From NCBI GenBank assembly GCA_027946365.1, contig JAPEUQ010000002.1, forward strand, positions 2,046,001-2,110,000: DNA of 64,000 nucleotides. Reading direction: 5' to 3'. Source of the stretch: Kalmusia sp. IMI 367209. Taxonomy: Eukaryota; Ascomycota; Dothideomycetes; Pleosporales; Didymosphaeriaceae. The position numbers and the translations under genes were made by a program. Of the stretch, positions 1-53,000 are shown in pieces; the stretch's first letter is position 1; the number at the start of each line of letters is the position of its first letter. The notes beneath the pieces were generated by a model. It made no database searches. It was not told the DNA's origin and saw only the letters and a list, made by a program, of their open reading frames with translations.

Positions 1-1951
1 ATATGGATAGTGATGCCGAGGCCTGCCTTCTCCCCGGCGTACTGAAAGTTGTCATGGATATGGCTTGCCGGTCTTTCAGAAAATGCATTCATAAGGTTCC
101 ATGACTCCGTGAGGCTGTCCTATCCATAGTTCAAAGCCCAATACGAATATTACGCCGTCCTTATCGCGATTCTTTCCAACATTGACACTTAAAACCGTTC
201 AAAGGCGTTTGATGTGGAAGTGTGTATGCTCCCCTCTGTGCCTCAAAGTGTCGTTCTGTATGAGCATGGGGTACACCACATTTTTAAACAGAAAAAAAGT
301 TCAAGCTAGTCGCCGCATGGCTCCAGGACGCGGCTCTGTCCTTTCCGGCAGTATTAATTCTTCATTATCCTCAATTCCCTGGTCTTTATAGAGCCGCCAT
401 AGAATTGGGCCAGAAGTGGTTTTACGTGGAAGCGTGCATCTTCCCTCCTATCCCAAATCACCAGAACCACTCGTATTTGTGGTGGATAAAAATTGAATGG
501 AGACCTAGCATGGTTCGGGGGAGGTTTTCCTGCTCAGATTGGCCTGTACAATCCATATGTGAGAGACCAGCAGCAGTACGTACCCGACGACACTCTTCTC
601 CAAAATCTCTCTCTAAAACCCAGAGGATGATACCGATATGTGCTTCTCTCTGCCTCGCTAAAACTATACTATAATGGAACTATGGAGCGCACCATTTGAA
701 TCTCAGTGCCTGCGCATCTACATAGGTCTGAGAGATTCTTCTGTCTTCTTCCAACTTCGCCGTTGCTGTACATCTATACGAAGGATACATTATCCCTGGA
801 AGATCAAATTCTTCCCCGTCAGCCACATAAAGGATTTAGTAGAAGATCTATTCATAATCTTTATTTACTCATTATCAGAAAGACACTTCAGCGAACACAT
901 GTGTACTGTGGCTTGATAACTCAACTCACAACTAAGTATATATATACCTGCGGAAGTATTTTCTGACTTCCCTCGACTTTATGAGCATATGGAGACTTTT
1001 AAAAATTTATCTACTTCATACCCTACTCTTGTCATGTCGATCAAACTTATAAAAGTTCGGTATATGTGGAGGCCTGCTTCTTCCGAGTCATACCAGAAAA
1101 GACTACCTTACAAATCCGGGTCATCATTCATATTGACACGACTAAAGGATATCTACGCCCTGGCTATGAAGTACGCGGCTTCGCAGAAGAAAGTGCATGA
1201 AAGCATCGCTCTGGGAGACTATCCTCTTCCTTTCCAGTCTAAAGTATTAAAATCAAGTCTTTTCTACTTCTTCATGAGTAATCCCTGGTTTGCGATATTG
1301 TACTAACATCATAAGGTCCCTCACATGATGTTCGAGCAATAAAAAGAAATCAATCTAACCAAGAAATGGAGTGCCTGGCTATGAGAACATAGAATAAACG
1401 GTTTGTGGCTCTTGGGGGCCCTCTTCTTTTATTTGATTGGTCGAATAACATCATGAAAGAGCTAGTTCTACAAGGGAACATATCCTATAGTCACTTGGAT
1501 CCTGAGCTCATAAGTATTCCTTTGTCGCTTGTCTAATCGCATCTCACACCTTTTTTCACGATCAAATGTCCATGTGATCGTCATAATTGACTCTCACCCA
1601 GATTCCTCTCATGTCTTAGTCGTTATGTCAGCGATGTCAGACGCCATGGGCGCTTTTACCACATGGGGCAATAAGCCATTACCGGACGCGGCACTGCAAC
1701 ATCACCTAGCACGACTCTCACAGACATCATAGCTGAATAGGTGGGACAGCATATGCCTACTAGATTCTAGGGCGATGAGGAAGGTCAAGTACGCAAAGAC
1801 ATATATAACGGCGTCATGAAGCGCCTCAAAACTCTGCCATTCTAATCACATAACATCAGCTACTCCGCTATAATTTTGCTGTATCGGTTTTACGAATTGA
1901 GATCACCGAGGTCGTCTTGCTGTCGTAATATCTTCTGTCCTCCATATTACT
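1..1951. other. No convincing gene; degenerate stretch
   Basis: I see no coding region I can defend here. Short open frames exist but show no recognisable domain, no plausible start context and no splice pattern. Related phrases recur at about 10-45, 205-240, 415-450 and 1060-1090 (a core like TGTGGAAGC/GGCCTGC followed by TTCTCC/TTCTTCC). Short CCCTGG-containing phrases recur near 375, 797, 1157 and 1280. This may be a decayed tandem family or chance. The last part, about 1850-1972, is the 5' flank of the esterase gene that follows. Confidence 0.4.
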
Positions 1952-1972
1952 TTGTATCCATATTCATCCACC

Positions 1973-3039
1973 ATGTCGAATAACGTCTACCTCGATCCCC
2001 TCAACCAAGCAGTAGCCGACCAATTTTCCTCCGAACCCCCTCTAGAAGATCTGACCGTCCCTGAATTCCGCGCCTTATTCGAGCGCGTCCAACAGCACGA
2101 CAATATTCCAGGCGTCACTCGCACGAGCTTCGCCGTCCCTTTCGAGAATGGTGTCGAAGTCTTCGTGTTCAAGGCTGATGGAGCCACGGGCGATCTCCCC
2201 GTCATCCTTTATTTACACGGAGGGGCCTGGATCGGAGGCAGGTAAGCCCCATTCAGTTAACTTTGTTGATTGGAATTGGAAAATATTGATAAATGCAGCG
2301 TAAACACGTACGACAGCATGTGTCGCGATCTGGCCCTGCAAACTGGCTTTGCCGTCGTCTTCCCATCTTACACACTCGCGCCCGAAGCGCGCTACCCAAC
2401 TCAGCAAGAACAGTGCTACGCTACTCTGAAATGGGTCTTCGAAAATGGCCACAGCCAAGGTTTGTCACAAGATCGATTCGCTATTGTGGGAGACAGCGCT
2501 GGAGGTAAGTATATCGCGCTTTTGAACGGTGATTAGAGCAATGCTGAAAATCATGCGTAGGCCAATTGACGGTCGCGGTTACGATACTAGCTTCGACACG
2601 CACTCCCACTATTCCGATCAAGTTTCAGGTCCTGCTCGGTCCTGTAGGTGACACGGTAACCAGCGACCGCGATACGCCCAGTGAATTCCGCTTCTTCAAC
2701 GGGCCGTTCAACACAGTGCCGTTCATGCGCAAAAGCATCGATACATATATCCCGTTGCCCGAAGATCGTGTGTCTGAACTGGCGACCGCGCGAAACATTA
2801 CGCCCGAGCACGCAGCGAAGCAGCCGCCAACGCTGATAATTAGTTCGGCGGTCGATGTACTGAGGGACGATGGGCTGCTATTTGGTGAGGCGCTGCAGAA
2901 GGCGGGGGTAGAGTGTGCGGTTGTAGTGGCGCATGGGCAATTGCATGTTAGTTTGGTGCTGGAGGCTACGAGGAAGGGGCCTACGCCCATGGCGATGATG
3001 CAGCTGGTGGCCACGCGCATCAAGGATGTTATAGGATAG
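1973..3039 (+). CDS. HSL-family alpha/beta hydrolase (esterase/lipase-like)
   Basis: Predicted cytoplasmic serine hydrolase of the hormone-sensitive-lipase type, cleaving small ester substrates; the substrate cannot be told from sequence. Three exons (1973-2241, 2299-2504, 2561-3039) give 317 residues, normal for the family. The oxyanion-hole motif HGGAW lies near the end of exon 1. The nucleophile elbow GDSAGG spans the second intron. The acid Asp is in SSAVDVLRDDG and the catalytic His in AHGQLH near the C-terminus, so the triad looks complete. I chose the ATG at 1973 because it sits in CCACCATG; an in-frame ATG seven codons earlier (1952) is possible. Both introns (57 and 56 nt) have GTAAG donors. 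The neighbouring GH71 gene is convergent, and there is no sign of a shared cluster. Confidence 0.88.
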
Positions 3040-3237
3040 AGACTGTATACCAGACAGGAAGAGGTACAGCCAACTGATGCTTGTGGAATGCGTCTACTAG
3101 TATCGATTCATTGAGGAAGGAGTAGGCGGGTATAAAATCTAACTCTATATGTTTACCATGTGACTGATATATATGATTCGTCGTCATCCGGGGAAGTTTT
3201 CGCAGATCCGAGCATTGCTAGATATCTTCCGCAACAT

Positions 3238-4720
3238 CTATCCAGGGAATCCAACGACCTGGAAGTTGTAGTTGCAAATCGAGGAAGTCGTCGCGACTTC
3301 TTGGTTGCTGTAACCACCGCCAATCATAGTGCTTCCATCCCCTTCGATCCCAAGCGTTAGCAAACTCCTAATTAAAAGGGTCAGGTGATAGACTCACAAA
3401 CTTCGAGCTGGACCTTCCCAGCACCCAGCTGATCAAACTTGAATTTGTTAAACCCCTCATTGAGCATAATCTGGCCAAGCTCCTTATCTCCGTTATTCAC
3501 CACAGCGACAAGCCCGGTATTACCCTTGGCTACTAAGACAACACCGCTGACCGAATCCTCAGCAGGTAGTGGATCCGGCTTTCCCTTGGGATCCGCACTA
3601 CAATCACCACCCACAGTGAGCGTATGGTGCCAGAAAGTGCCCTGAACCCGCTGTCCATTCGTCGGTACCATGCTGTCAGCCGTCTGATCGCAATCGTGCC
3701 ATGCTTGCGTGAACGACTTGATAATCTGCCAGTAGCCCTTGTGATCAAAGCCACCGTACCATGCCTGCGCCTCCTTGCTACCTGCGTTAGGCTCGTCCCA
3801 GAGATTGCCGATGTAGTGGCTTTCGGGGGGCGTCGTTCCACGTCTGGATCTCGATCATGTCGGGCTGGTCCTTGAGTAGCTCTTCCATGCGGTACTCGAG
3901 GTTCTGCTCGCCGCGACGGTACCAGTTCTGACCTTCATAGTGCTTGAAGTTCACGGGTGAGAGACCAGCGATGCGGATCTTGCCCTCGGCATTGGCTACG
4001 GCTTGCTTCCACACGCCGTCGTCGGTCGTTTCCATAGAAGTTGCTACGTTGCCCGCGGATTGAGCAGGCCATGAATTCCAGCCAAATACACCGTCGTAGC
4101 TGGGATTAGCACTGAAGAGGTCGGGTGACGGAGCGTTCTTGTAGAGTCCAGGGACGAGAACGATGTTGCCGCCGACATCGCTCTTGAATTGAGACCACTT
4201 GCTATCGGGCAGGTCCTCGCCACCAAAAGTTGATACTAAGGCTTTTCCATTGTGCTGGAAGTATGCGCTCCTCTGCAGGTAAGGCTTGACGTATTCAGTG
4301 ACTTGGCTAGGGTCTGCGAAGTTGTTGTCGCCAAAGTCGAAGGAGAAGAAGAGTTTAAAACCGAGGGCCTCGGCGTTGTTGAAGAGGAAATCGACGGTTT
4401 TGGTTGCCCATTCTTCAAGAGAGTCTAATTTGTGTTAGTAATGTTTTGCAGAATCACAGCGTGGGTGTAGTACTAATGTTGAGCGCGAACGCATCGAGTC
4501 CCAGGTCCTTTGCGTCCTGGATATCCTGCTTGGTGTGCTCGTCGAAAATCTCCCCAATCATGTAGTGTGCGAAACTTTCGACGTGAGCGGTGACTTTACA
4601 AAAGACAGTTTTGTGGTCTTACATTGGCTTGCTTGAGCATTGGCGCCTCTCCAGCGCATGGGGCGCACACGAAGCCAAGGCCACCAGCGCAGCAACGGAC
4701 CAGCCAGCAAGAAGACGCAT
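3238..4720 (-). CDS. Secreted GH71 alpha-1,3-glucanase (mutanase), frameshifted
   Basis: Glycoside hydrolase family 71 enzymes cut alpha-1,3-glucan in fungal walls and septa. The start at 4720 gives a hydrophobic signal peptide (MRLLAGWSVAALVALASC) followed by a Kex2-like LERR. Hand splicing uses introns 4575-4622 (48 nt), 4425-4473 (49 nt, branch TACTAAC) and 3342-3397 (56 nt, branch TGCTAAC). These restore family motifs in order: FAHYMIGE, LGLDAFALNI, FFSFDFGDNNF, VFGWNSWP, RRGEQNLEYRM, QTWND and ESHYIGNLWDEPN. The frame breaks between QTWNDAP and ESHYIG at six identical bases (G3825-3830 on the plus strand). Removing one base restores the reading, so this is either a sequencing indel or a young inactivating mutation just before the conserved ESHYIG segment. 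The last exon, ending NYNFQVVGFPG, replaces an earlier stop that would come from intron read-through. Confidence 0.85.
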
Positions 4721-5813
4721 CGTAAAATGAACGACTGAAAACAAAGAGAATGAATGACTCGCAAACAAAGGCAACAAAAGAGTGACGATGAGGCTCGAGA
4801 TTATCGCCACAGCAAGCTGAAGGCAATTCTTATATCAGGAGGGACGATGCGCATACCATTATGTCGAGTTATTCTTGAAACGTCCGCTCAAGTAAGGCCA
4901 TCGACTAAGCACCCACGGTGACTTCGATGGGGCTGTCATTGTTAGGTTCGGAAACATGAAACTACAGCCGGACCTGCGCGAAGTCCGCCATCCGCGAGGT
5001 TAGCGCAAGCATGTTCATTCGATATAACGTTAGCGCCTCGTAATACCGACTTGAAAGAACAGAATGTGGAAGTTGCGCAGGGCAAGGGGCGTTTCAAGCC
5101 ACAAAATGCCGGCTTGTCGATGGCATGTTTTCTACCAATGACCAACCATTGATGTTTGGTATGTCTTCGAGTGTTACTTTAGAGCCTTCTAATTACCAGA
5201 GAGTATCTCAATCCTAACAAACTTGTTGCCTGAGACTGCTAAGCATTCTTGTGAGGCTGGGGTTAACTGAATCGGCCTCCGACGGTGTCCGCTACTATTG
5301 TGGAATGTCGTCTGGCATCCCTCGCAAGACAGTTGCTTCATGCCAGCCTGAGAGATTGAAACAGAGAATGCATACCTCTCAGACTCATGTGTACTCCTTT
5401 TGAGTTCAGCGAGAACGAAGAGTCGTCATTGTAGGCCAGTGAAATCGGGGGGATCGGGGGCCAAAGGAGATGTGTGCGGCTGTACTAACCAAGACAGGAA
5501 AGGTTCAAGAACATATCTGCCGATCAACGCTCGGAATTCCCGACACTAATACTCCTACCACCTTGTAGTGACATTCTGTCTACACACAGTTGTAAATATG
5601 GCTGTCTGTAAGTGCTCAAGGATTTATATGATGCTATGCGGTTTTCCGGACTTGATCTTGATCCTTGTCGCCTATGATACATAAGGTTTGATTGCAAGAC
5701 TGCTCAAAGTACAGCATGGAGAGAACGAAGCAGTCGCCTAGTTTGAACAAAATCTCCACGAGACACATTCACGGATATGCATACAGTCTCCAGTACGAGT
5801 GGTACCTTGGTTC
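4721..5813. other. Intergenic, no gene seen
   Basis: This stretch lies between the divergent 5' end of the GH71 gene and the 3' end of the next minus-strand gene. Several short open frames are present on both strands, but none has a recognisable motif or a consistent splice pattern. A G-rich run (CGGGGGGATCGGGGG) lies near 5447-5460. The first few hundred bases should hold the GH71 promoter. Confidence 0.5.
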
Positions 5814-40337: not shown

Positions 40338-40468
40338 ATGCCGCCGCGACTCGCACCTGCCGTGTCGACGCTGGCTCGGCAGACCATGAAGACGGCCTTT
40401 GACGAGTTGGAGAGAATTGTCACACCCACCGATGCACGTGACTTTCGAACGACGACCCTTCAACAGGA
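40338..40468 (+). pseudogene. 5' fragment of interrupted NLR-like (STAND) gene
   Basis: The frame starting at 40338 (MPPRLAPAVSTLARQTMKTAF) continues through VTPTDARDFRTTTLQQD to the transposon edge. Deleting the element and one copy of the duplicated TA joins CAGGA-TA-TGCTC. The frame then runs on without a break into MLTLQAVRTAALEVEKRLE on the far side (50050 onwards). This is the N-terminal region usual for fungal STAND proteins with a DUF7708-like domain. The gene is split by 9.58 kb and cannot make an intact protein unless the element excises. Confidence 0.8.
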
Positions 40469-40470
40469 TA

Positions 40471-40584
40471 CAGCTCAGCCGACTGGTCAAAAAGCCAAGC
40501 CTACTAGTGGGGTCTGAGCTTCCTCGTGCCAAGCAGTAGGCTTAGCTTTTAAATTAACTAACTAGTCGGCTGAGCTTTACTAAT
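40471..40584 (+). repeat. Left terminal inverted repeat of outer element
   Basis: 114 bp matching the reverse complement of 49936-50049 with few differences. Those seen (positions around 40506, 40514, 40557-40565) are all C/T or G/A transitions. The repeat is itself palindromic: CTCAGCCGACTGGTC at its start is mirrored by GACTAGTCGGCTGAG near its end, and AAGCCAAGCCTACT by AGTAGGCTTAGCTT. Each end could thus fold as a long hairpin. Confidence 0.9.
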
Positions 40585-42584
40585 CATAAGTCTTATGTAA
40601 AATACAAAAAAATAAGAGGATATAAATATATTCTTAGCGTATTTATATCCTATTCATCTCCTAATTGCAAACGCCTCCATCTCTCAAATAAATCTAGCTC
40701 CTTTTCCTTAATAGCTTGCTGCTCTACCTTTAGCTTAGTTTTTAATAGTTTTAATTTAATCTACTGCCTTCGCTGATCTATTTCTTACTAAGAAAATTAC
40801 CCAATAGTCCTAATAGAACGTGTTAGTAATATGTTCTAAACAGATTATAGAATATTTATAAGGCGTATCTAGTAGATAGCCTTTATAAGTTAGATCTTAA
40901 AGTTAAACTTCCTCATAAGTTTTACCGTAAGCCCCTACGCCGAATAATACCACTTAAGGATACTCTAATAAGAAAAGAGTTAGGGTTAATAAAATTCTTA
41001 GGCTGTTCCTTAATAGCTAAAGTACGACGCCGTTCTAGAATACGTTAAGAATATGTTTAAATCCTATTTAGAATGTTATAAAGTATTATCTACTTTCATA
41101 AGTATATAACTGCTGAAATTAAGCTACTAGAGACGTATCTCTCTATCTATAAGATACTCTAAAGCTCTAGTAAGTATTATACTAATCTATATCACGCCTA
41201 TTAAGCCTTTCACTACTAGAACACCTTAGGAACATGCTTAGAACGAGTTAGGAATATCTTAAGAACTTATTTTAAGATTATAGCTAGTATCCTTTACTTT
41301 TTACTAGTTATATTTAACTTATTTACACTTTGCTTAATAGCATTCGTATGATACCGTAACGTAGTAAAGATAATAGGGTTAATTAATAAATAAGCCTTAT
41401 TAAGCCCACCTATAATAAGTAGATGGCGCTTATGCCTAGCCTATTCTTTAATAGGAGCTTCTTTATACTCTATAACGTGTTAGTAAGATATTGTAAACAT
41501 ATTCTAAATATAATAAATACTAATTAAAAGATCGTAAAGCTAATTATACTTAGTAGTAGTTTAATAGGTTAATAAAGATTTTATGCGTAACTGTAACTTA
41601 TAGTTTATAGATACTAGAGTAGTTATACTTCTAAAGAAGTATATAAGATAGAATACTATTATCTTTTATATATACTATACTGGTGGTCTAGCTTGTGGAT
41701 CGATAGAATGGAGATATTACCTAAATTCTAGGAATATACTTAGAATATATTTTAAATATGTTATAGCAGCTTACCTAGAAATTGGCCGCTATATATATTA
41801 AGGGTAATTAACGTAAACGAACAATCTTCGCTAAAGGTAATATAGGACTAGGATAGCTTCTTATCTAATATATTCTCAACGTATTTAAAAGCCTTTAGAA
41901 TGCCTTGAAATAGCTTTCTTAGTCCTGTTTCTCGATATATACTCTCGCGAGGGTAATAACTATTTAAGTTAATAACCTATTCTAAATGTGTTCTAGACGT
42001 ATTTACTTTACTATATTTCTAAGGAATTTTCTAATTATCATTTCGTTCAGATTTCGCTGCTTAATTTATTTAAAGAGACATTAACTTCAAAATTCTCTTA
42101 TATTAATAGAATCTAAAGCTTATCCTTTAGTAAAGCATATAATCTAAATCCTAGAGATATTATTATATATACCTTAGATATATTGCTATATAATTACGTT
42201 AGTAATACCTTTATAACGCGTTTAGAATACGTTTATATATATTTACTACCGTCCTATATCTTTGCTCATATTTAAATACTACGCCTATAAAATCTCATCC
42301 TTAAGGCTAATAGATAATTCGCTATTTACATATAATTACTAATATTTAATCAAGGTTATTAAACAAAATATAGAGATCTTATAATATTTAAATATTATTC
42401 TATTAATAGTATTGCTGAAGTAAGGGCTCCGAAGAAATATACCTAAGGAAGGTTATTAACACGTTATAAATAGCTTTTAAACATGTTCTAAACCTATTAT
42501 TAACCCTAGGTCTTTTATAGATTTTATAAGCTTTATAATCTCATAGATAATAGATCCTAGCGGCTTATTTAGTGGCGGTGGTGG
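40585..42584. repeat. RIP-saturated AT-rich left interior of outer element
   Basis: No open reading frame of note. The DNA is dominated by TA-rich words, and stop codons occur in all frames. Degenerate copies of a short near-palindromic core (like AACGTGTTAGTAATATGTTCTAAAC) recur at about 40827, 41035, 41220, 41478, 41730, 41988, 42213 and 42462. The right interior carries more copies. This is the part of the outer element to the left of the hAT insertion. Confidence 0.75.
40650..40770 (-). pseudogene. C-terminal relic of a transposase-like protein
   Basis: On the minus strand a frame reads KLKVEQQAIKEKELDLFERW, then RRLQLGDE and a stop at 40650-40652. A short Lys/Glu-rich coiled tail before the stop is common in Fot1/pogo-type transposases. 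Upstream the frame dissolves into RIP-mutated DNA. Low certainty on family; it is clearly protein-derived by its codon pattern. Confidence 0.4.
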
Positions 42585-42592
42585 GTGTATAT
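42585..42592 (+). repeat. Target site duplication, left copy
   Basis: GTGTATAT, identical to the copy at 48549-48556 on the other side of the hAT element. Confidence 0.92.
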
Positions 42593-42775
42593 TAGACTGG
42601 CAAATGGGTATAGGTTGGGTTGGGGTTGGGTCAGATTACATAAGACCCTAACCCAACCTATACCTAAACCCATTAATTTAGCGCTAGTAATGGGTATAGG
42701 TTAGGTTAGGTTACTAAAATCAGGGTTGGGTTAGGGTTAGGGTATATGGTTATGTCTAGGGTCTGAGTAATCATA
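42593..42775 (+). repeat. Left subterminal repeats of hAT element, telomere-like
   Basis: The terminus is followed by G-rich repeats of the type GGGTATAGGTTGGGTT and GGTTAGGGTTAGGG, with a mirrored C-rich patch (CCCTAACCCAACCTATACC) between. hAT transposases bind short subterminal repeats, so these are probably binding sites. The likeness to telomeric TTAGGG is striking, but it lies strictly inside the element ends. Confidence 0.75.
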
Positions 42776-42927
42776 ATCAATTAATATATTTCTATTTACG
42801 TCTTAGTCGTTTTTTTTAATTATGATTATTGTTAAAGGTGGATACTAGGTAGCTAGGTAATATCAACTATCACGCATTTATTACAGTTAATTATAACAGT
42901 ATAACTAGATTCATTGCTACTAGAGCT

Positions 42928-43502
42928 TCATGACCTATAACTACTACCCCTAACAGGTTTTCTCCTTAATTTGATAGAACGCAGGATATGGTATCTTTGG
43001 TAGTAACGCTTTGCCAAATAAGAATCTTTGACCTGAATTGTAACCCTCTTTGCATGGATCGCATTCATTTGGCAGTCTAGGAAAATAAGTATTTACTTAA
43101 TAGTTAATATACTGATTAGAGTACATACCTTCAAGATATCCAACCATGAACGCCTCAGTAGCTTCTTGAAGAGCACTTGCAGAAGCCTGGATGCGCAAGT
43201 CCGGCTTGCAGGCATGGACTAGCTCGCGAACAAGACGTGAGAATGGAAGCTTGCGAATAAGTAGCTCTGCAGTTTTTTGATATTGCCTAATCTCTAAGCG
43301 CCACCGCTATATCCTATCAGCTTAAGAATGTGATTAGAAGCTGTGATAACTTACTGCCTGGCTTAAAGCGCCGCTTTTTCTTCGCATTGCCAGCGATCTT
43401 CTCGCGCGCAGCCTTACTAGCTAGATCTTTCTTGGGAGCTTTTCCGCCAGTTGCTAGCTTATGGCGAGGCTTTTTAGTAGCAACTTGTTTAGATCTAGCC
43501 AT
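42928..43502 (-). CDS. Divergent histone H3-like protein inside the hAT element
   Basis: Three exons cover a whole H3 fold. Exon 1 from 43502 reads [20 protein letters not shown], then [15 protein letters not shown] and KKRRFKPG. Exon 2 reads [52 protein letters not shown]. Exon 3 reads [20 protein letters not shown] and ends [10 protein letters not shown]. Compared with canonical H3, K4, K14, K18 and K23 positions are recognisable. The tail has a basic insertion, and the ARKS motifs around K9 and K27 are changed ([14 protein letters not shown]). At the first splice the TVALREI segment is damaged: AGAGAG appears as AGAG (two bases lost), giving a stop. A downstream acceptor (CTTAG) restores frame as KPGKIRQYQ. 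A full-length product is therefore possible but altered at the start of the alphaN helix. Its role is unknown. Confidence 0.8.
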
Positions 43503-44019
43503 TATAGGTAGAGTTTGTAGAGCAAGATAAAGTTAGAGCAGTTGAAAGTAGAAGTAGAAAGTAGAAGTAGAAAGCTAGAAGTTTAGTCGCTGAGGCAATA
43601 GTTATATAGGCGGTGAATATAGAAGTGAGAAGTGAAGGTGAGAGGGAGAAAGTGAAGGTGAGAGGGAAATACAAAAAGTTGGGCAAGCTAATTTACAGAC
43701 TCTATCAGCGTATATCACAACAACTCCGTGATAAATTTCCGTGATAATTCACATAGGGAAAGAGCTTAAGATGCGCTTTCGATTGATACTCTTGCCGTAG
43801 TAATGCGACTTTTTTTGGTCGCTGTATGCGTATGCGCAATATACGATTATTATTATTTATTGTTGTTGTACCGCGCTAGCATCGCGCACAGGCCACCAAA
43901 TCTCGCTTAACTGCATCTATAGTCAGTCCCTGTCAACTTTCTTCTACCTACCTTTCTACTATCACTTTTGCAGGATCGCTCTATAAGTTACTACATGCCT
44001 TTATTACAGTTTCTGCGCA

Positions 44020-45209
44020 ATGAAGTCTCCGCCTATTAAGCAAGAGCCTATTGAAGAGACCGATTATCTAGATCGTCCTGAGGGTTTACTGCCCAGTATT
44101 AAGCGCGAGATACCAGCTGGATATGACTATGATGAGTGGGACAATTTACAGAGGTATTTATTCTAGTTTATTATCACAGTATAAACTAATTTATATAGGT
44201 TTTACTCTGAAGAGCAAGAAATCGATCACGTCCTCTCACTACGTGGACAGAGCGGTTCTCGAAAGGTCGTCCTACGAACTTATCAGTACCGTTTAAGGGC
44301 GTACTTAGTAATAGTGCTCGTGCTGTTCAGCAAAGAGATCGAGCTGCTCTACGTGATAGAGAGACCAAGGCTATTGAGAGCGCTAATGCTGCTGATCGTT
44401 CTGCCAAAAGTATGCTTAAGAAGAGACTTGAAAACAAGACACGTACACTTCTCTGTCTGAGGATGCAAAGAAAACTACCTTAAGATGGAGCAGGAGAAGC
44501 TTTCAGATCAGCTTTCAGAATCAGAAGAGTAGTAAGTTATAACAGTAATTTATCACATGTTTATACTTACAAGGTGTAGGTGAATGGCTAGTAGCTCAGC
44601 TACAACGAGTCCACCGGAAATGGGAGAAGCTAATCACGAAGCTCTTAGGCAGCACCACAAATCCCTAGAGGAAGCAGCCCAGGCTAGTAAAAGCTTCTGA
44701 TAGACAACTCCAAGGCCGCGGAGAGTTGCGACTTATGGATTGGCGGTGCCCTTATAAATTAGTGAGACAATCGAAGACGGCTTAGCAAAGCTCAAAAGCA
44801 ATACATTCGAAAGCAAAGAGTATAAAGCTGATTGCTATCACTTATAGATGGCCTACCAAAGAAGAGTTAGCTATGGTAACAGATAAGGACTGGCAGTAAG
44901 TTTATTACATCTTTTATCACGCTTATATACTAATTACGCTAGACGTTGTGAGCCCACGTCTGTCCTTGAGTTGTATATCTGGGGGAGAAGATATTACGCT
45001 TGGTGCCAATTTGCCATATGTTCTTATGATGAGAGTGATGAGTGTGAAGAAGAAGTTGACTATGACTCTGAGATTGACGCTGCGTATAATGAGGGGATGA
45101 TGAATATGAGACCTCTACTGATAAAGATGAGGATGAGGATAATGATGATAGTGAGGAGGAGTTTGAGGGCTTTACAGATTTTGAGGGGTTTTCTGATGAA
45201 GACGATTGA
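44020..45209 (+). pseudogene. Cargo gene with charged middle and acidic C-terminus, frameshifted
   Basis: Unrecognised protein. Starts at 44020 (MKSPPIKQEPIEETDYLDRP), with two SUMO-like psi-K-x-E sites (IKQE, IKRE). An intron (GTATTT...TATAG) joins to FYSEEQEIDHVLSLRGQ. Beyond that the likely frame shifts to a charged helix (AVQQRDRAALRDRETKAIES, ...KSMLKKRLENKTRT) and shifts again to KENYLKMEQEKLSDQLSESE. After further intron-like gaps the last part reads YIWGRRYYAWCQFA, then DESDECEEEVDYDSEIDAAY and finally a run of Asp/Glu ending EGFSDEDD at 45209. At least two indels separate these parts. An acidic tail is a common feature of histone-binding proteins, which is notable next to the H3-like gene, but function is not established. 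Confidence 0.5.
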
Positions 45210-45557
45210 GTGTCAGAGTCTACTACAGAATGAATACTCAAATATTAGGAGGTAGATCTTAGTTAAGTTTTGGCACTCTGCTTAACTGCAATTAGCTAGT
45301 AATAGTTAATACAGCTAATAATCACAGATTGTTTACCTGGAATGTAAACATATCATTTATGATTTTAATACTCACTTATTATGGAATGTACTTAGGAATG
45401 TAAACAGACGTACTAGAATATCATAAGCCCTGCACCCTATCTTATAGTCATGAATGGAAACATACGCATTAAACCCTCTCAGGCCACCAACATATCTCAC
45501 AACTCCTTTAGTTTTATCACATCTTTTATCACACCACTATCCTTATCCATTCTACTT

Positions 45558-48079
45558 ATGGCATCTGCTCTTCAATCCCCACAGTTTCCACCTATCCTTA
45601 ATCAATTCCAATTAAGCGCCCCCCAAATTGTTAGAGGGGGAACTCAGAGCACCCTGATATTAATTAAATATCCATCTACGAATAACGAACACAATGAGGA
45701 ACAAAGCGAAATTCGTTCTATATGGAATAAGTGGTGGAGTGAAACTACATGGGCTACGGATCCTTTAACTCATAACCCACGGTGGAATTCAACCTCTCGT
45801 TTTGGCCAAATCTGGACCCACTTTGAGAGGCCGCACAGTATACAGATGGTCGCCCATATGTATTCTGTCTTAATTGCGGATTTGCACTTCAACATCCAAC
45901 AGTCAAAACAATTGAACTAAGCATCTTACGAATCACCTTAATACTCAATCTTGTAAGGAGACTCTAACTCCTATACATATTCAGTTACCTACACCTACGG
46001 CCCGGCCTCTACATTATCGAAATACTATAACACCAGTCCCATTGTATTCTCCTATGACCTATGAGAATGAACTTGTACGGGTGGTATAGACAACAACTGG
46101 TCTTTTTCCGAACAGTAGAGAGGCCATCCTTCAACGCTTCCTTCAATACCTAGGCCCAATACTGTGATAACGAGCCGTTATAAATTACAGTCGATATTCC
46201 AGGATCAAGTTAAACAGCTAAAGCTTCTCTACTTTGTGATCTTTGTAAAACTACGAAGATCTCAATTGCCTTAGATGTTTGGTCTGCAAGAAACCATCTT
46301 AGCTTTCTTGCAGTAAGGGGTACTATATTAATAACAACTGGGAATTTTGTGAGAAGCTACTTGATTTTATCCCACTGTGGAAGCCATACAGGTACTTCTA
46401 TGGCATTAGAAGTACTACAGGTTCTATCTGATACGAATACTAGCAGCAACTTCTAGCTATCACATGTGATAATGCTAGTAATAATGGAACACTGGCCTGT
46501 ACTATCCAAACTCAACTACAAGAAGAAGGTATTAATTGGGATTCTACTGAGAATACGGTTCCATGCCTCGCTCATATCATCAATCTGGTTGTCCAGGATA
46601 TCATTCAGCATCTTGAGCTAGCAGCTCCTAGTGAGCTAGAGGTTGAAGAGAATCTACAACGGCGCCATATAAATGAGATTCAATCAGAAATTTCAATACC
46701 GAATTTCTTCGGAAGGTAAGCTAGCTTTTATCACAGGTATTTATTACAGACTAAGTTATGGCTAGCTCCGGGCAATATGCAAAGCGATTGATCGATCCCC
46801 ACAACGTTTTGAACGTTTTATTGCTACTCAGCAATCCCTACCACCAAAAGAACGTCTCTCTGTTATACGAGACGTGAGAACTCGTTGGAATTCGACGTTC
46901 GACATGTGTGACCGCGCAGTTAAGCTCCAGTCATATATCGATGAATGGCTTAAACAAGAAATCAACTTAAAAACGACTCCTCATATTACTAGGGCTACCA
47001 GTAATAATGATAACGCGGAGGTAGATTTCCGTGACCTTAAACGACTTCGACTATCTCATACTGAGTGGCACCACCTTGAGCTTATCACAGCTATGCTAAA
47101 GAGGTTTAAGGATGCAACCGACTCTTTGAGCCAGAACCAAAAACCACAGATCCAATATATCTGGCTTATGTATAATCGACTCTTTGATTTTTTAGATAAG
47201 ATGACGGAAGAGCTTAGTGAAGATTCAGAGAATAGAGATAACGCAGAGTGGCCAACAGTAGTAAGAGCTGCAGCTAGAAAAGGACGAGCTAAACTAAGCA
47301 AGTACTATTCGAAAACAGATGCAGAGCGGGGCTTCTTATTCAACTGCGCAACTATTCTCGATCCAACACAAAAGCTTACAGCATATGAGGTACTATTATC
47401 ACAGCTATTTATTACAGTAATCACTAATACTATCTATAGGATGATACTTGGGAAGCTCAGGACAAGCATAACTACCGCCAGCAATTTCTTCAATACCTTG
47501 ATCGCTATGATAATAAAGAAACCAGAGATTTTACTCCAGTCTCAACTACCTATCCTAGACGATCATCAGGTACAGAGTGGTTCCGGAAGCCCCCATCCTT
47601 AAACCAATCACAGTCAAGTAGTATTTCAGTATCTAGCCAAAACCAGGGTACTAGCTTACAACATATGGAAGAAGAGCAAGGGGCAGCACGTCAGGAAGGA
47701 GAAGCTTATCTAAGTACACCTCATATTATTATAGGTGAATCTTTTGATATTTTACAGTGGTGGAAAGCAAATGAGGATACTTATCCTCATCTTGCCCAAA
47801 TTGCAAAAGATATTCTACCTATTCAGATTACTGCAGTAAGTATTGAGCGTGTTTTTAATATTGCAAGAGATGTAATTGGAGATCGGAGACACCGTCTTTC
47901 AGCCCAGAGAATTCAGCAGATCATGTTTTTTTAAGCATGCAATTTTTCAAGAGAAGGAGCAATATATTATTACAGAGGATAGCCTAGCACCTTATGATGG
48001 AGTAAATGATCTTTTTGAGCTTCCAACCTATTCAGATCATATAGATAGTATAGAGGAGGAAGAGATTACAGAGGAGTAA
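45558..48079 (+). pseudogene. hAT-family transposase with BED finger, decayed
   Basis: N-terminal frame from 45558 (MASALQSPQFPPILNQF). A BED-type finger is recognisable across a frame change: YVFCLNCGFALQHPT, then TKHLTNHLNTQSCKE. Premature stops follow near 46087-46170. The catalytic region reads TCDNASNNGTLACT, VPCLAHIINLVVQDII, then after an intron DVRTRWNSTFDMCDRAVKL (the RW motif) and a long helical domain. A 50-nt intron at about 47391-47440 precedes the dimerisation domain: DILQWWKANEDTYPHLAQIA, DILPIQITAVSIERVFNIAR, RHRLSAQRIQQIMFF. Several indels and stops make it non-functional as read, although the C-terminal half is intact. Introns share a TTATCACA...TTTATTACAG phrase. Confidence 0.85.
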
Positions 48080-48359
48080 AGAGGTTATAGATGAGGAAGA
48101 TATTATAGAGCAGAAGATATTGTACATATTCCTAGTGTAAATAGGAGCAATACTCCAACACGTAAACGTCGAAGGGTTCAACCTCCTTTACGTTACCGTG
48201 TTTAATAGCTGTTATAAATAAATAGTTCATATCTCTGACTTCCGCTAGTAGAGTGTTCTACAAAAGTTATAGACGTTTCCTAAATATACTTTCTAGTAAT
48301 AAATTATATAAAATATCAATATAAATTACGTTATATAAATCCAACCTAGATAGGAACCC

Positions 48360-48548
48360 TTAAGCAACCTATACCCAAGGTCCGTGCGACCCAACCCTAA
48401 CCTGCACCTAGGGTCCAAAAGTGCGACCCAACCTTAACTCTACACCTAAGGTTCGTGCGACCCAACCCTCAACCTATACCCAATGCTTAGTAATAGCTAA
48501 CCCAACCTCAACCTACCTATGGTTAACCCCAACCCATTTGCCAGTCTA
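48360..48548 (-). repeat. Right subterminal repeats of hAT element
   Basis: Reads as repeated CCCAACCCTAACCTGCACC and GTGCGACCCAACC units, then AACCCCAACCCATTTG into the terminus. It is the C-rich counterpart of the left subterminal block, in inverted orientation, and probably serves transposase binding. Confidence 0.75.
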
Positions 48549-48556
48549 GTGTATAT
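48549..48556 (+). repeat. Target site duplication, right copy
   Basis: GTGTATAT, identical to 42585-42592. Confidence 0.92.
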
Positions 48557-49935
48557 GCTCTCTAATTAATATTAAAAGGATATATAGTATAGTAAGAAGG
48601 TCCTTAGATATAAATAAATAGAAAACTATATTATAGGTTTTATAAGAAGTTTTCAGGGCCTTATAGATGGTTAATACCTATTAAATAGTTTAGAACGCGT
48701 TTAGAACTTATTTTAAATAGTTTACTATAATTCTTTCTTCGATAGCTTCGTTGTTCTATTATATAATAGCTAGTTAAAGAAGTAGTACTTTCCTTTATAG
48801 AGGATAGCAGTTCTTCTAGATAAGATATATTATATTTTGTAATAGAGGATAATAGTTTTAGTAAATAAGGGTTCTTTACTATATCGTATAATTCTCACAG
48901 CATAAGAAATACTAGGGTTAGTTATTAATATCCTAAAACGTTAGGAACGTGTTTATATTATATTTATAATATAATTTTAAGGTAGTTACCTATATTATAC
49001 CTTGCTTTTTATAAACATAGTATATATATAGGTTATTAGTCTATATAGGCAATTCCTTACTGGAATCGTCTTTAAAGGCTTATGAATAGACTATTTATAG
49101 TAAGTATATTTATAACACGCTCTAAACGTGTTATAAACGCGTTTATATCTCAATAGATTAGGTTAGAATCTAAGTAATTAATAACCTACCGAAGCTCTTA
49201 GATTAATCTCTAAGTAGAATCCTCTACTTTAGTATATATTAACGTTTATAAGGTATTATGAATATATTTATAATATAATATATCTATATAACGTAACTTC
49301 CATTTCGTTCATAGGCGCCATTTAAGAAAGGTGAGGTTACTATAGTTACTTAATAGATTTGGCTCTAGCTATATTGCACCTATTAAAGCGCAATCATATT
49401 AGTATATATATAGAACACCTTATAAACATCTTAATAACGTATTTTTATATAGTAGACGCTACTTTGTATAGGATTATGTTGAGAACATGTTAGGAACTAC
49501 TTACTAATACCTGTTTAAGATCGAGGATATCAGTTATATTTATATAGTATATATAGCTATCTTTATATATTTATGAATATTCTAGTATATATAAAGCAAA
49601 TTCGAGCTCAGCAGTAATAAGGGGGCTAAACTATACTATAATAAGTATAATAGGCATAAATAGGTTCCTCCTAAAAGAATGTTAACGTGTTATAAACATG
49701 TTTAGAATATCATAGTTTTAATCTACCTCTTCCTCTAATATGGTAGTATTTAACTCTTTAATCTCTAGGTTAACTTACTGTAAAACACTATCCTCAATAT
49801 TAGGTAGCTTAGAGATATCTATTTAGTAAGGAATAGCCTTAGAATATGTTTAGAATATGTTACCATAGGTTGCGATATGTGAAGAATCACAAAATATAGG
49901 GGTAAAAGAATACTATTATAAAGTGAAAATTTTTT
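48557..49935. repeat. RIP-saturated AT-rich right interior of outer element
   Basis: Continuation of 40585-42584 after the hAT insertion. It has the same TA-rich character, no usable frame, and further degenerate copies of the AACGTGTTATAAACATGTTTAGAA-like core at about 48690, 48935, 49112, 49420, 49685 and 49845. Confidence 0.75.
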
Positions 49936-50049
49936 ATTAGTAAAGCTCAGCCGACTGGTCGGTTAATTTAAAAGCTAAGCCTACTGCTTGGCACGAGGAA
50001 GCTCGGACCCCACCAGTAGGCTTGGCTTTTTGACCAGTCGGCTGAGCTG
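49936..50049 (-). repeat. Right terminal inverted repeat of outer element
   Basis: Inverted partner of 40471-40584, ending GGCTGAGCTG directly before the TA at 50050-50051. It keeps CGACCAGTCGG where the left copy has TAACTAGTCGG, so the left copy carries more RIP-like transitions. Small open frames beginning MARGSSDPTSRLG arise in both repeats from this shared sequence and are not genes. Confidence 0.9.
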
Positions 50050-53000
50050 TATGCTCACCCTTCAAGCTGTACGCACGGCGGCCTTGGAGGTAGAGAAAAG
50101 ATTGGAAGCAAAACAAACACTTCGGAACATGCGCCGCTTGAAACCGCTATTTGATGGGATGGAGCACTATGCAAAAGTCGTTGACATTCTTTGCAATGGG
50201 ACCCCGTTCTTACCATGGATCTGGGCGCCCATTACACTGATCTTGAAAATATCCTCTGAGTATATCGAGGCCTTTGAGCTGCTGATGAAAGGGTAAGTGT
50301 CTTCTAGTTCTATTTGCGTCCATGGGATCGATTTGCGTGGATCGGCCGGTCTACAACAGCGCCTTTTTCAAATGATTCGAGTAGGCGGTCATGCTTTCTG
50401 CGATTTTAGTATGAAATTACTTGAATAGCTTAGATTGGAAGGGGGCAGGAAAGCTAACGAGCTGTGCGCTTACCAAAATTGACCGAGGAAAAACGCTAAC
50501 GCTGGCACGTGCCACCTGCAATTAGATACGACAAAATCGCTTCAAATCTTGGGAGATTTGAAAGGCTCAGTTCAGAATTCCTCACGAACCAAAATTTTCA
50601 GTATACCCTAGCGGTCTACTATGCAGATGTCCTGCAGTTTCATAAGCATGCTTACAAGTTTGTACGCCGGAGTGGTGAGTTACTTTTTCGTAGCTGCGGT
50701 GCCAGATTGGATCTGATCCTGGACTAAGCTCACAGTTTGCAGGATGGCAACTGCTCTTCGTTACGTCATGGGGTCGATTCCAAAGACGATTCGATAACCT
50801 CCTTGAAGATCTAAAAAGACACGGTGAATTGATCGACACAGAAGCGAACTCTCATAACATTGTGGAAGCCAACCGCATGCGCAAGGAGATAAGACAATGG
50901 AGAGAAGAAAGTCTTGACCAGGTCGAGCGTGATGAAGAAGAGCGTGCTGCAAGTCACTTCCGATCGGTACTGTCTTGGCTCAAGATTGATGAGTCTGAGC
51001 AGCTTTCCATATGCGATTCCATATATGAGGAGGGCTCAAAGTATCCTGGCACATGCTCTTGGGTCACCGGACACTCGAAGATACGTTCATGGCTCCAACA
51101 GAAAGCAGATTCTCCAGTGGTCTGGTTACAAGGCAATCCCGGCACGGGCAAGAGCATTGCCTCCGGACAGATCGTGAAGTTCATTGACAATGGCCATACC
51201 TTTGTGATTCGACACTTTTGCACTTACTCGCACGTGGCTTCTACCAAGTACGACAATGTTGTCAAGTCTCTGCTCTCACAGCTCATTCGTGGAAACGGAG
51301 AATTGGTTGCACACGTCTACCAAGATTGCATTTTGAACAAGAAGGCGCCGACCATCACCCTTTTGGAGCAGTTGATATGCACGCTTTGTGCCAGCATCAC
51401 TGAGGAGCCTGGCAAGGTGCGATATTTGTGGATCGTTCTGGACGGCCTAGACGAATGCGAGCAAAATAAGCAATGCCGTCTGCTCAGTTTAATGAACCAG
51501 ATCTTGTCGAAATCGGCTTCGGAAGGCAAGACAGTGTGCAAATTGCTTGTATCAAGCAGGCCTTCGCCAATAATCAACAAGTACCTCCGCAAGAAACAGG
51601 TTGTTTCACTATCCGACGAGACGGATCAATTGAACAGGTCCATCCAGATGTACGCTTCACAGAGGCTACTATCTACAAGTAAACGGCTTCGACAATTGGA
51701 TATCGAGCAAGAAGACATCGATGAACTAGCAAACAACGTTGCAACCAAGGCTCATGGCATGTTTCTTTATGCCCGATTGGTTCTTGACTATGTTACTTCG
51801 AACATCTTCTACAGCGCAGATGAGATTAAGGTTTCCATCAACCAGCTCCCTCCAAGCTTGACTGAATTCTATCAGAAGATACTGACCCAGATGATCCAAG
51901 GTTTAGACGCACGCTCGGTCGACCGAGTCAAGACAATTTTGAGCTGGGTCGCATTTGCGAAACGGCCGCTGAAGAAACTAGAGTTGCTGTCAGCTGTATC
52001 ATTTGGGCAAGCCAACCCTAACATTGATCGTCTTGTTCCACCGTATATCTTGGACATTTGCGGTCCACTGATGGAGGAACGACGTGATGCAACTCTCGCT
52101 TTTATACACGTCTCTGTGAAAGAGTAGGTTGAGTCCTGAATCGTCATGATCATGTTAAAGCTTACAATTCGGCTAGATTTCTTCAGTCCGCTCAGGGCCG
52201 TATCTCCATTTCCGAACGCGTCGCATCACGAGAACATGCCACTGCCACCGTTACTTCACTACTCGCTGGACTTCGAGTTTTTCAGGAGGGTGCTGATGAG
52301 CGCATCCGACTGCTTCAGCTTGTCCGAGGCGTACATGGACTCCATGTCTATGCGACCGAATTCTGGATTGAGTGTCTTTTGAGCGATGCAGCATTCACGA
52401 ACGGATTTGATGTCTCCTCCGATCTTTTCGCCCTTGCATCTGGGTTGGCGCACCAACTTAGCGCTGGTCGCACCGATCCGCTGCCCAAGGAGCTTACGGT
52501 GCAGCCGTCTGACGTTGATGAACGACTGCAACTTTTCCAGCAGCATCCGCTTATTTATGAGCAGATGAAAGCTGCTTTGAACGCACGATCGCGCAAGCAT
52601 CTCGAGAATGAAATGTTACGCCAGCAAGGTGAGCTTCCACACGAAACCTCCCCCTGAGCGAGCGCGCATGGTAATCGCAGTGGCTGATAAAACGCAAAAC
52701 ACTAAACCAGTCGCAGGTCATCCGCCTCCTCTCGATGGTATTTCGCACATGCTCCGATCCTATCAACAGGCAGTGGAACTACTCTTAAACGAGGAGTTCC
52801 ACCCTGGCGTCTCTGCCGAAGAACTTGAAAATTGTGAGTGGGCCCAAAACTAGTACGTAATGAACTGTCGGCTGACTGTGCCCGTACGTTCAGTCAAAAG
52901 CCAATTCAGAACTTCAGCATTCACGTGTCGCCTTCGGTCCTGTCCAAGAGCCACGATTGGCTTTGAGAACGATTCTCTGCGACGGGAACACGAGGTCACG

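What the first reader, a model, noticed from the sequence alone, without database searches (positions are those of the whole stretch)
42928..43502. Histone H3-like gene carried inside a hAT transposon
The gene lies wholly between the hAT ends and covers the H3 tail, the histone fold and the C-terminal helix over three exons. The tail is rewritten around the positions of K9 and K27, with the ARKS motifs lost and a basic insertion. A transposon-borne H3 variant could alter the chromatin of its own DNA, for example by escaping H3K9/K27 methylation-based silencing. That idea fits the lack of RIP saturation in this element compared with its host element.
Basis: partly seen in the sequence, partly recalled or inferred. 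Interest (0 to 1): 0.87.

Follow-up and report, generated by a model that had tools for sequence, protein, structure and literature searches.

The report
Histone H3-like gene in hAT transposon
A fungal jumping gene carries its own altered copy of the DNA-packaging protein histone H3; such elements were already described in a related fungus, but comparison suggests the histone is an old, maintained part of the transposon and not a passing passenger.

Summary
The kind is known: Manning 2013 described a ~5.6-kb hAT with transposase, central ORF and H3L in Pyrenophora tritici-repentis (Ptr). This is a new member in another genome. Corrections: the window copy has small deletions against its sister copies, so the proposed CTTAG acceptor is probably an artefact; copy L038 encodes an intact 147-aa H3L in three exons. 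RIP escape is not supported: 9 of 21 full-length copies are RIP-saturated although all 21 carry the H3L region. K9/K27 loss is not conserved across H3Ls. New here, as far as my searches go: eight H3Ls (this genome, four named Pleosporales, three unnamed sources) form one branch (99/97) apart from canonical H3 and CenH3. All eight have Asn at H3 position 110 and Tyr at 130, two of four residues that control H3-H3' pairing. Between window and Ptr, H3L (61%) and transposase (63%) have diverged about equally. Best reading: an old hAT accessory gene kept by selection, probably making a variant nucleosome. Function is untested.

The parts
42593..48548 (+). hAT element, full length, oriented by its transposase
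   Evidence: TIR TAGACTGGCAAATGGG / CCAGTCTA and 8-bp TSD GTGTATAT; 20 further full-length copies
42585..42592 (.). left target site duplication GTGTATAT
48549..48556 (.). right target site duplication GTGTATAT
43355..43502 (-). H3L exon 1 (N-terminal tail to RRFKPG)
   Evidence: structure as in copy L038
43129..43306 (-). H3L exon 2 (aN, a1, a2); in this copy carries a 2-nt and a 3-nt deletion against sister copies
42928..43076 (-). H3L exon 3 (C-terminal helix); in the frame of L038 it would end near 42966, in the window's own frame it runs to 42928
44020..45210 (+). central gene of unknown function with probable introns (ends by eye), found in sister copies; the Ptr element also has a central ORF
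   Evidence: for Ptr; not compared with the Ptr ORF by sequence
45558..48205 (+). hAT transposase gene with introns (ends by eye), frame disrupted by small indels in this copy; a query joined from three copies is 63% identical over 80% to the Ptr protein P0234
   Evidence: PF05699 1.9e-18, PF14372 1.2e-4 and below its curated cut-off
40465..50055 (.). outer AT-rich, RIP-degraded element with 130-bp TIRs (92% complementary) into which the hAT is inserted
   Evidence: composite RIP index 0.95-0.99 in its flanking parts

Best explanation
H3L is an old accessory gene of one hAT lineage in Pleosporales. It was captured once, before the lineages sampled here separated, and has since been kept by selection together with the transposase. 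It encodes an H3 variant that can probably still enter nucleosomes but has a changed H3-H3' pairing surface (N110, Y130, Y/F131), a freely varying tail and a different C-terminal end. Proposed working: the element expresses H3L in trans; H3L pairs with host H4 and enters chromatin, making nucleosomes that are less readily modified or more easily disassembled, so that transposon DNA is more open to expression or excision. Shown: position inside hAT ends, presence in 21 of 21 full-length copies, an intact frame in one copy, one-branch grouping, shared signature residues, divergence similar to the transposase. Taken from Manning 2013: ESTs for H3L in Ptr. Inferred: selection on function, incorporation into chromatin, benefit to the element.
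For: 21 of 21 full-length copies contain the H3L region. Intact 147-aa three-exon gene in L038. Eight H3Ls form one side of a branch with 99/97 support against 18 canonical H3 and CenH3 rows. The L038 H3L has both residues. Window-Ptr identity is 61% for H3L and 63% over 80% of the query for the transposase. The query and nine of the 15 near transposases form a 100/100 branch, and the next relatives are about 29% identical. Neutral simulation of two lineages down to 61% protein identity gives on average 3.5 stops, with none in only 64 of 2000 runs. H3L introns (just after PG and LE) are not those of the host H3 (after ARK and VTI), so the copy is not a plain recent duplicate of that gene.
Against: Only for Ptr (published) and this genome is H3L known to lie in a hAT; the other H3L proteins came without genomic context. 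No DNA-level dN/dS. As assembled, 11 of the 12 least-RIPped copies differ from the majority in the H3L region. The simulation is one-sided: databases list intact frames, and 3% of neutral pairs also lack stops. H3Ls were first picked by a C-terminal motif, so finding shared residues there is partly circular. Enrichment of conservation at DNA-contact positions is not significant (13 of 23, P=0.076). RIP saturates 9 of 21 copies, so H3L gives no lasting protection. Manning 2013 suggested that the genes 'may have undergone drift'. The AlphaFold model was uninformative (mean pLDDT 51).
Confidence: 0.45

Rival explanations
1. Passive transduplication: a host H3 was captured by the hAT and hitchhikes; its tail and fold drift, and only recent copies look intact. 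This is close to the view in Manning 2013 and Dhillon 2019.
For: Tail differs widely among H3Ls, and only 39 of 94 fold positions keep the host residue in all eight. Many copies are broken as assembled or RIPped. H3 capture by another hAT in Mycosphaerellaceae, with all copies dead, shows that H3 can be picked up without evident benefit.
Against: One-branch grouping with shared residues, complete frames in seven sources and a partial one in an eighth at 60-70% identity to the window protein, divergence about equal to that of the transposase, no full-length copy without the H3L region among 21.
Confidence: 0.3
2. H3L is an old host H3 variant of Pleosporales, picked up by the hAT more than once; its constraint belongs to the host gene.
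For: Six of the eight H3L proteins (Paraphoma, P. teres, Massariosphaeria, three unnamed) have no known transposon context.
Against: In this genome three H3-type protein searches found canonical H3, CenH3 and 31 clusters of H3L hits; the nine clusters outside near-complete copies or the split C13 copy each have a central-gene hit within 3 kb, so no free H3L locus was seen. Ptr H3Ls are also in hATs.
Confidence: 0.12
3. H3L acts against the host, for example as a dominant-negative or dosage-disturbing histone that weakens heterochromatin generally, instead of marking transposon DNA.
For: An altered pairing surface could poison mixed H3-H3L tetramers; copy number is high (31 clusters of hits, a lower bound, many of them RIPped or broken).
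Against: No expression or phenotype data here; copies are still RIPped.
Confidence: 0.1

Closest known systems
Ptr H3L hAT transduplication (Manning et al. 2013, PMC3538342; section 20 read, passages elsewhere)
   Same: hAT element of about 5.6 kb with TIRs, full-length transposase, central ORF and an H3L gene; many near-identical copies; tail insertions; neither H3 nor CenH3
   Different: Another genome; H3L 61% and transposase 63% identical to the Ptr proteins; here 9 of 21 full-length copies are RIP-saturated whereas the Ptr copies are described as nearly identical; the 2.3-kb short form was not looked for here
hAT with captured H3 in Pseudocercospora fijiensis and other Mycosphaerellaceae (Dhillon et al. 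2019, PMC6710886; abstract, Results and first part of the Discussion read)
   Same: H3 sequence inside a hAT, amplified and RIPped
   Different: About 9.5-kb element with an intronless H3 retrocopy, all copies inactivated; that paper found no similarity between those hATs and the Ptr hAT; not compared here by sequence
Repeat R25 of Stagonospora nodorum (Hane and Oliver 2010, PMC3017866; passages seen)
   Same: RIP-degraded repeat matching a Ptr histone H3 protein (EDU47581.1) and, weakly, DNA transposons
   Different: Only a degraded consensus was described, re-classified as presumably an endogenous gene region; whether EDU47581.1 is an H3L was not checked
CenH3 and canonical H3 of the same genome
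   Same: Histone fold
   Different: Lack N110 and Y130; canonical H3 has different introns; CenH3 at C12:185.6-186 kb, H3 beside H4 at C12:2.358 Mb

Membership tests
hAT superfamily | 8-bp target site duplication | tested here: met
   GTGTATAT in the window; identical 8-bp duplication in 13 of the 20 other copies, one mismatch in one, different flanks in five, left end not found in one
hAT superfamily | short terminal inverted repeats | tested here: met
hAT superfamily | transposase with hAT dimerisation domain | tested here: met
   PF05699 1.9e-18; 63% to Ptr P0234
H3L-hAT group of Manning 2013 | H3L plus central ORF plus transposase between TIRs | tested here: met
   homology of the two central genes not tested
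H3L-hAT group of Manning 2013 | transposase on the Ptr branch | tested here: met
   100/100 branch of the query and nine of 15 near hits, next relatives about 29%; that P0234 is the transposase of the published H3L element is inferred from its name and 28 member sequences
H3L-hAT group of Manning 2013 | H3L on one branch with Ptr H3L | tested here: met
   99/97; P0192 taken as the published H3L from its species, 19 member sequences and features
Canonical histone H3 | near-invariant tail with ARKS at K9 and K27 | tested here: not met
CenH3 (CENP-A) | groups with CenH3 | tested here: not met
   H3L lies apart from host CenH3, the only CenH3 in the tree
Functional histone | incorporation into nucleosomes | not testable with these tools
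   needs protein or cells

The most novel reading that the evidence does not exclude
The hAT lineage encodes a partner-selective histone H3: natural changes at positions 110 and 130 (and 131, often 109) make H3L-H4 prefer H3L over host H3, so that the element builds its own homotypic nucleosomes. It would be a natural counterpart of the designed H3X/H3Y pairs (eLife 2017, PMC5626479), serving selfish DNA.
Probability: 0.15. Interest if true: 0.92.

Novelty: new member of a known kind. Interest (0 to 1): 0.6.

Why it matters
A eukaryotic DNA transposon that keeps a histone gene under selection would mean that selfish DNA can interfere with chromatin by supplying its building block, not only by evading readers and writers. 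The shared changes at the H3-H3' pairing surface make this directly testable with recombinant histones or a yeast H3 shuffle strain. If selection is not confirmed, it remains a clear example of a captured gene and of RIP acting on transposon cargo.

Tried and rejected
Rejected: escape from RIP; CTTAG acceptor as a real splice site; C12:185.6-186 kb as a second H3L, which by sequence is CenH3. Contig-end clustering as subtelomeric targeting: 8 of 21 full-length copies lie within 25 kb of a contig end (P=3e-7 against uniform), but the last 300 bases of the nine contig ends checked show no telomere repeat array, so assembly breaks at repeats explain it as well.

Candidates for hAT copies without H3L: five of 31 transposase clusters had no H3L hit within 7.5 kb (a lower-bound list; 73 of the 89 rows were put in, the other 16 fall in the same clusters). 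One (C6, L048) has a decayed H3L region in the alignment, one (C30) has decayed H3L remains, one (C5) is a transposase fragment of about 400 bases, and two are truncated or split copies (C29:1580, C13:570).

Led nowhere: viral-contig scan for H3L, no relatives; AlphaFold of seven H3Ls, pLDDT 51; DNA-contact enrichment not significant (contact list recalled); young-versus-old substitution analysis has no power because all 69 differences are RIP-type.

Selections made: the tree used 8 H3Ls, host H3, host CenH3 and 16 of the other 225 H3-type proteins, picked by hand (P0195 left out as a near-copy of P0192). The transposase tree used the query plus 17 of 88 hits, picked by hand. H3L proteins were recognised by a C-terminal motif in the 233 listed proteins, and P0225 was added by eye; that one search finds the shared residues again in them is therefore partly circular, the tree less so. 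The first indel count (222 of 274) used a wrong right end for L038; one search repeats it with the right end (223 of 275).

Full report
What is there. The window is part of a 42.8-Mb, 30-contig genome, fungal by its genes and by RIP. A hAT element spans 42593-48548 with an 8-bp target duplication. It sits inside an older AT-rich element with 130-bp inverted repeats at 40465-50055 whose sequence is RIP-degraded. The hAT carries three genes: H3L on the minus strand near the left end, a central gene of unknown function, and a transposase with a hAT dimerisation domain.

The gene. Among the 12 least-RIPped copies the window differs from the majority by four small deletions, two of them in exon 2; copy L038 shows no difference from the majority in this region and encodes a 147-aa protein with two introns, just after PG and just after LE. 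The intact protein keeps TVALRE, which the window reading loses. Indels of 1-3 nt differ from copy to copy, and 223 of 275 single-base ones sit beside the same base. This suggests uncorrected long-read errors, so true breakage of the window copy is undecided. Substitutions occur too: over the whole element the window has 57 indel events, 21 C>T or G>A and 46 other differences from the majority; L038 has 45, 18 and 17.

Copies and RIP. DNA search found 23 near-complete copies, a lower bound. The window and 20 others were read in full, and all 21 contain the H3L region; the two not fetched (C4, C1) have H3L hits at the expected place. Ten copies have a composite RIP index of 0.07-0.13, two 0.35-0.37 and nine 0.85-1.31. 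All 69 young-versus-old majority differences in 444 coding bases are C>T or G>A. So the family is a normal RIP target, and carrying H3L does not protect it.

Relatives. Two protein searches, each listing the best 120 of 1559 and 7991 matches, and a motif filter gave H3L relatives: Paraphoma chrysanthemicola P0004 (partial), Pyrenophora teres P0025, Ptr P0192 and P0195, Massariosphaeria phaeospora P0225 (added by eye), and P0005, P0007 and P0178 from unnamed contigs (sources lgn and jgi). Paraphoma, Massariosphaeria, Boeremia and Ptr are Pleosporales. That the window genome is one too is inferred from its nearest transposases. Eight H3Ls form one side of a branch (99/97) against 18 other H3 and CenH3 rows; the root was not tested, but the other side holds canonical H3s of distant eukaryotes. 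The host has a canonical H3 beside H4, with introns elsewhere, and a CenH3. Three searches gave 31 further clusters of hits. The nine clusters that do not lie in near-complete copies or in the split C13 copy each have a central-gene hit within 3 kb, so no free H3L locus was seen.

Signature. In positions 38-131, 39 of 94 are identical to host H3 in all eight H3Ls; S102G, C110N and L130Y are shared by all eight. G102 is common in canonical H3 (202 of 260 matches) and so is not special. The N110 pattern occurs in 7 of the 233 listed H3-type proteins, all H3Ls (P0195 has N110 too but escapes the pattern); the Y130 pattern in 9, of which one, P0213, is not an H3L. The passages seen of PMC5626479 name L109, A110, L126 and L130 as the hydrophobic cluster of the H3-H3' interface and show that changes there control pairing; passages of PMC3093613 report that C110E weakens tetramers in solution, yet such histones still form nucleosome-like particles, so N110 need not block assembly. 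H3L keeps L126, H113 (7 of 8), A114, R116 and D123. The tail is free: K27 is kept in 6 of 8 and K9 in 3 of 8 on this alignment.

Transposase. The nearest protein is a Ptr hAT protein (63% over 80%). Fifteen near hits include Boeremia and unnamed rows; nine of them with the query form a 100/100 branch; the next relatives, from Penicillium, are about 29% identical. H3L differs about as much between the window and Ptr (61%). A neutral simulation to that divergence leaves both frames open in 64 of 2000 runs, which favours constraint but does not prove it.

What is known. Manning 2013 (section 20 read) described this kind of element in Ptr, with ESTs for H3L, suggested drift, and raised altered chromatin as a possibility. 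Dhillon 2019 (abstract, Results and the first part of the Discussion read) described another H3-capturing hAT and called the Ptr case recent and independent. Hane and Oliver 2010 (passages) found an H3-matching RIPped repeat, R25, in Stagonospora nodorum. In the listings of searches I saw no paper whose title or abstract proposes a single old H3L lineage kept with the transposase, or the pairing-surface signature; subscription papers and preprints were not searched.

Verdict. The element is real and of a published kind, so it counts as a new member. The RIP-escape reading fails. The stronger and testable reading is an old transposon histone with a changed pairing surface; its function is open.

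Noticed in passing
window 40465-50055: Outer element with 130-bp TIRs beginning CAGCTCAGCCGACTGGTC, apparently flanked by TA (Tc1/mariner-like by eye); interior AT-rich and RIPped, with the hAT inserted later.
   Followed up: partly
window 42593-48548, introns of H3L, central gene and transposase: The motif TTATCACAG / TATTACAG recurs in or near intron ends of this element by eye (3 exact TTATCACAG plus 2 reverse in L038, none in the window outside the element); possible intron-borne repeat.
   Followed up: partly
window 42600-42760 and 48370-48530: Subterminal parts of the hAT are rich in GGGTTAGGG/GGGTTGGG-like repeats resembling telomere repeats.
   Followed up: no
G000 contig ends (L052-L060): 8 of 21 full-length hAT copies lie within 25 kb of a contig end; the last 300 bases of nine contig ends checked show no telomere repeat array, so the cause may be assembly breaks.
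   Followed up: partly
G000:C13:558917-570905: One hAT-H3L copy appears to be split by a second copy inserted into it (pieces 1-1917 and 1921-5092 of the element flank the copy at 561091-567051).
   Followed up: no
window 50056-50296: Open frame directly beside the outer TIR that looks like the N-terminal part of a fungal NACHT/STAND-type protein (by eye, not searched); the outer element may have inserted into this gene.
   Followed up: no
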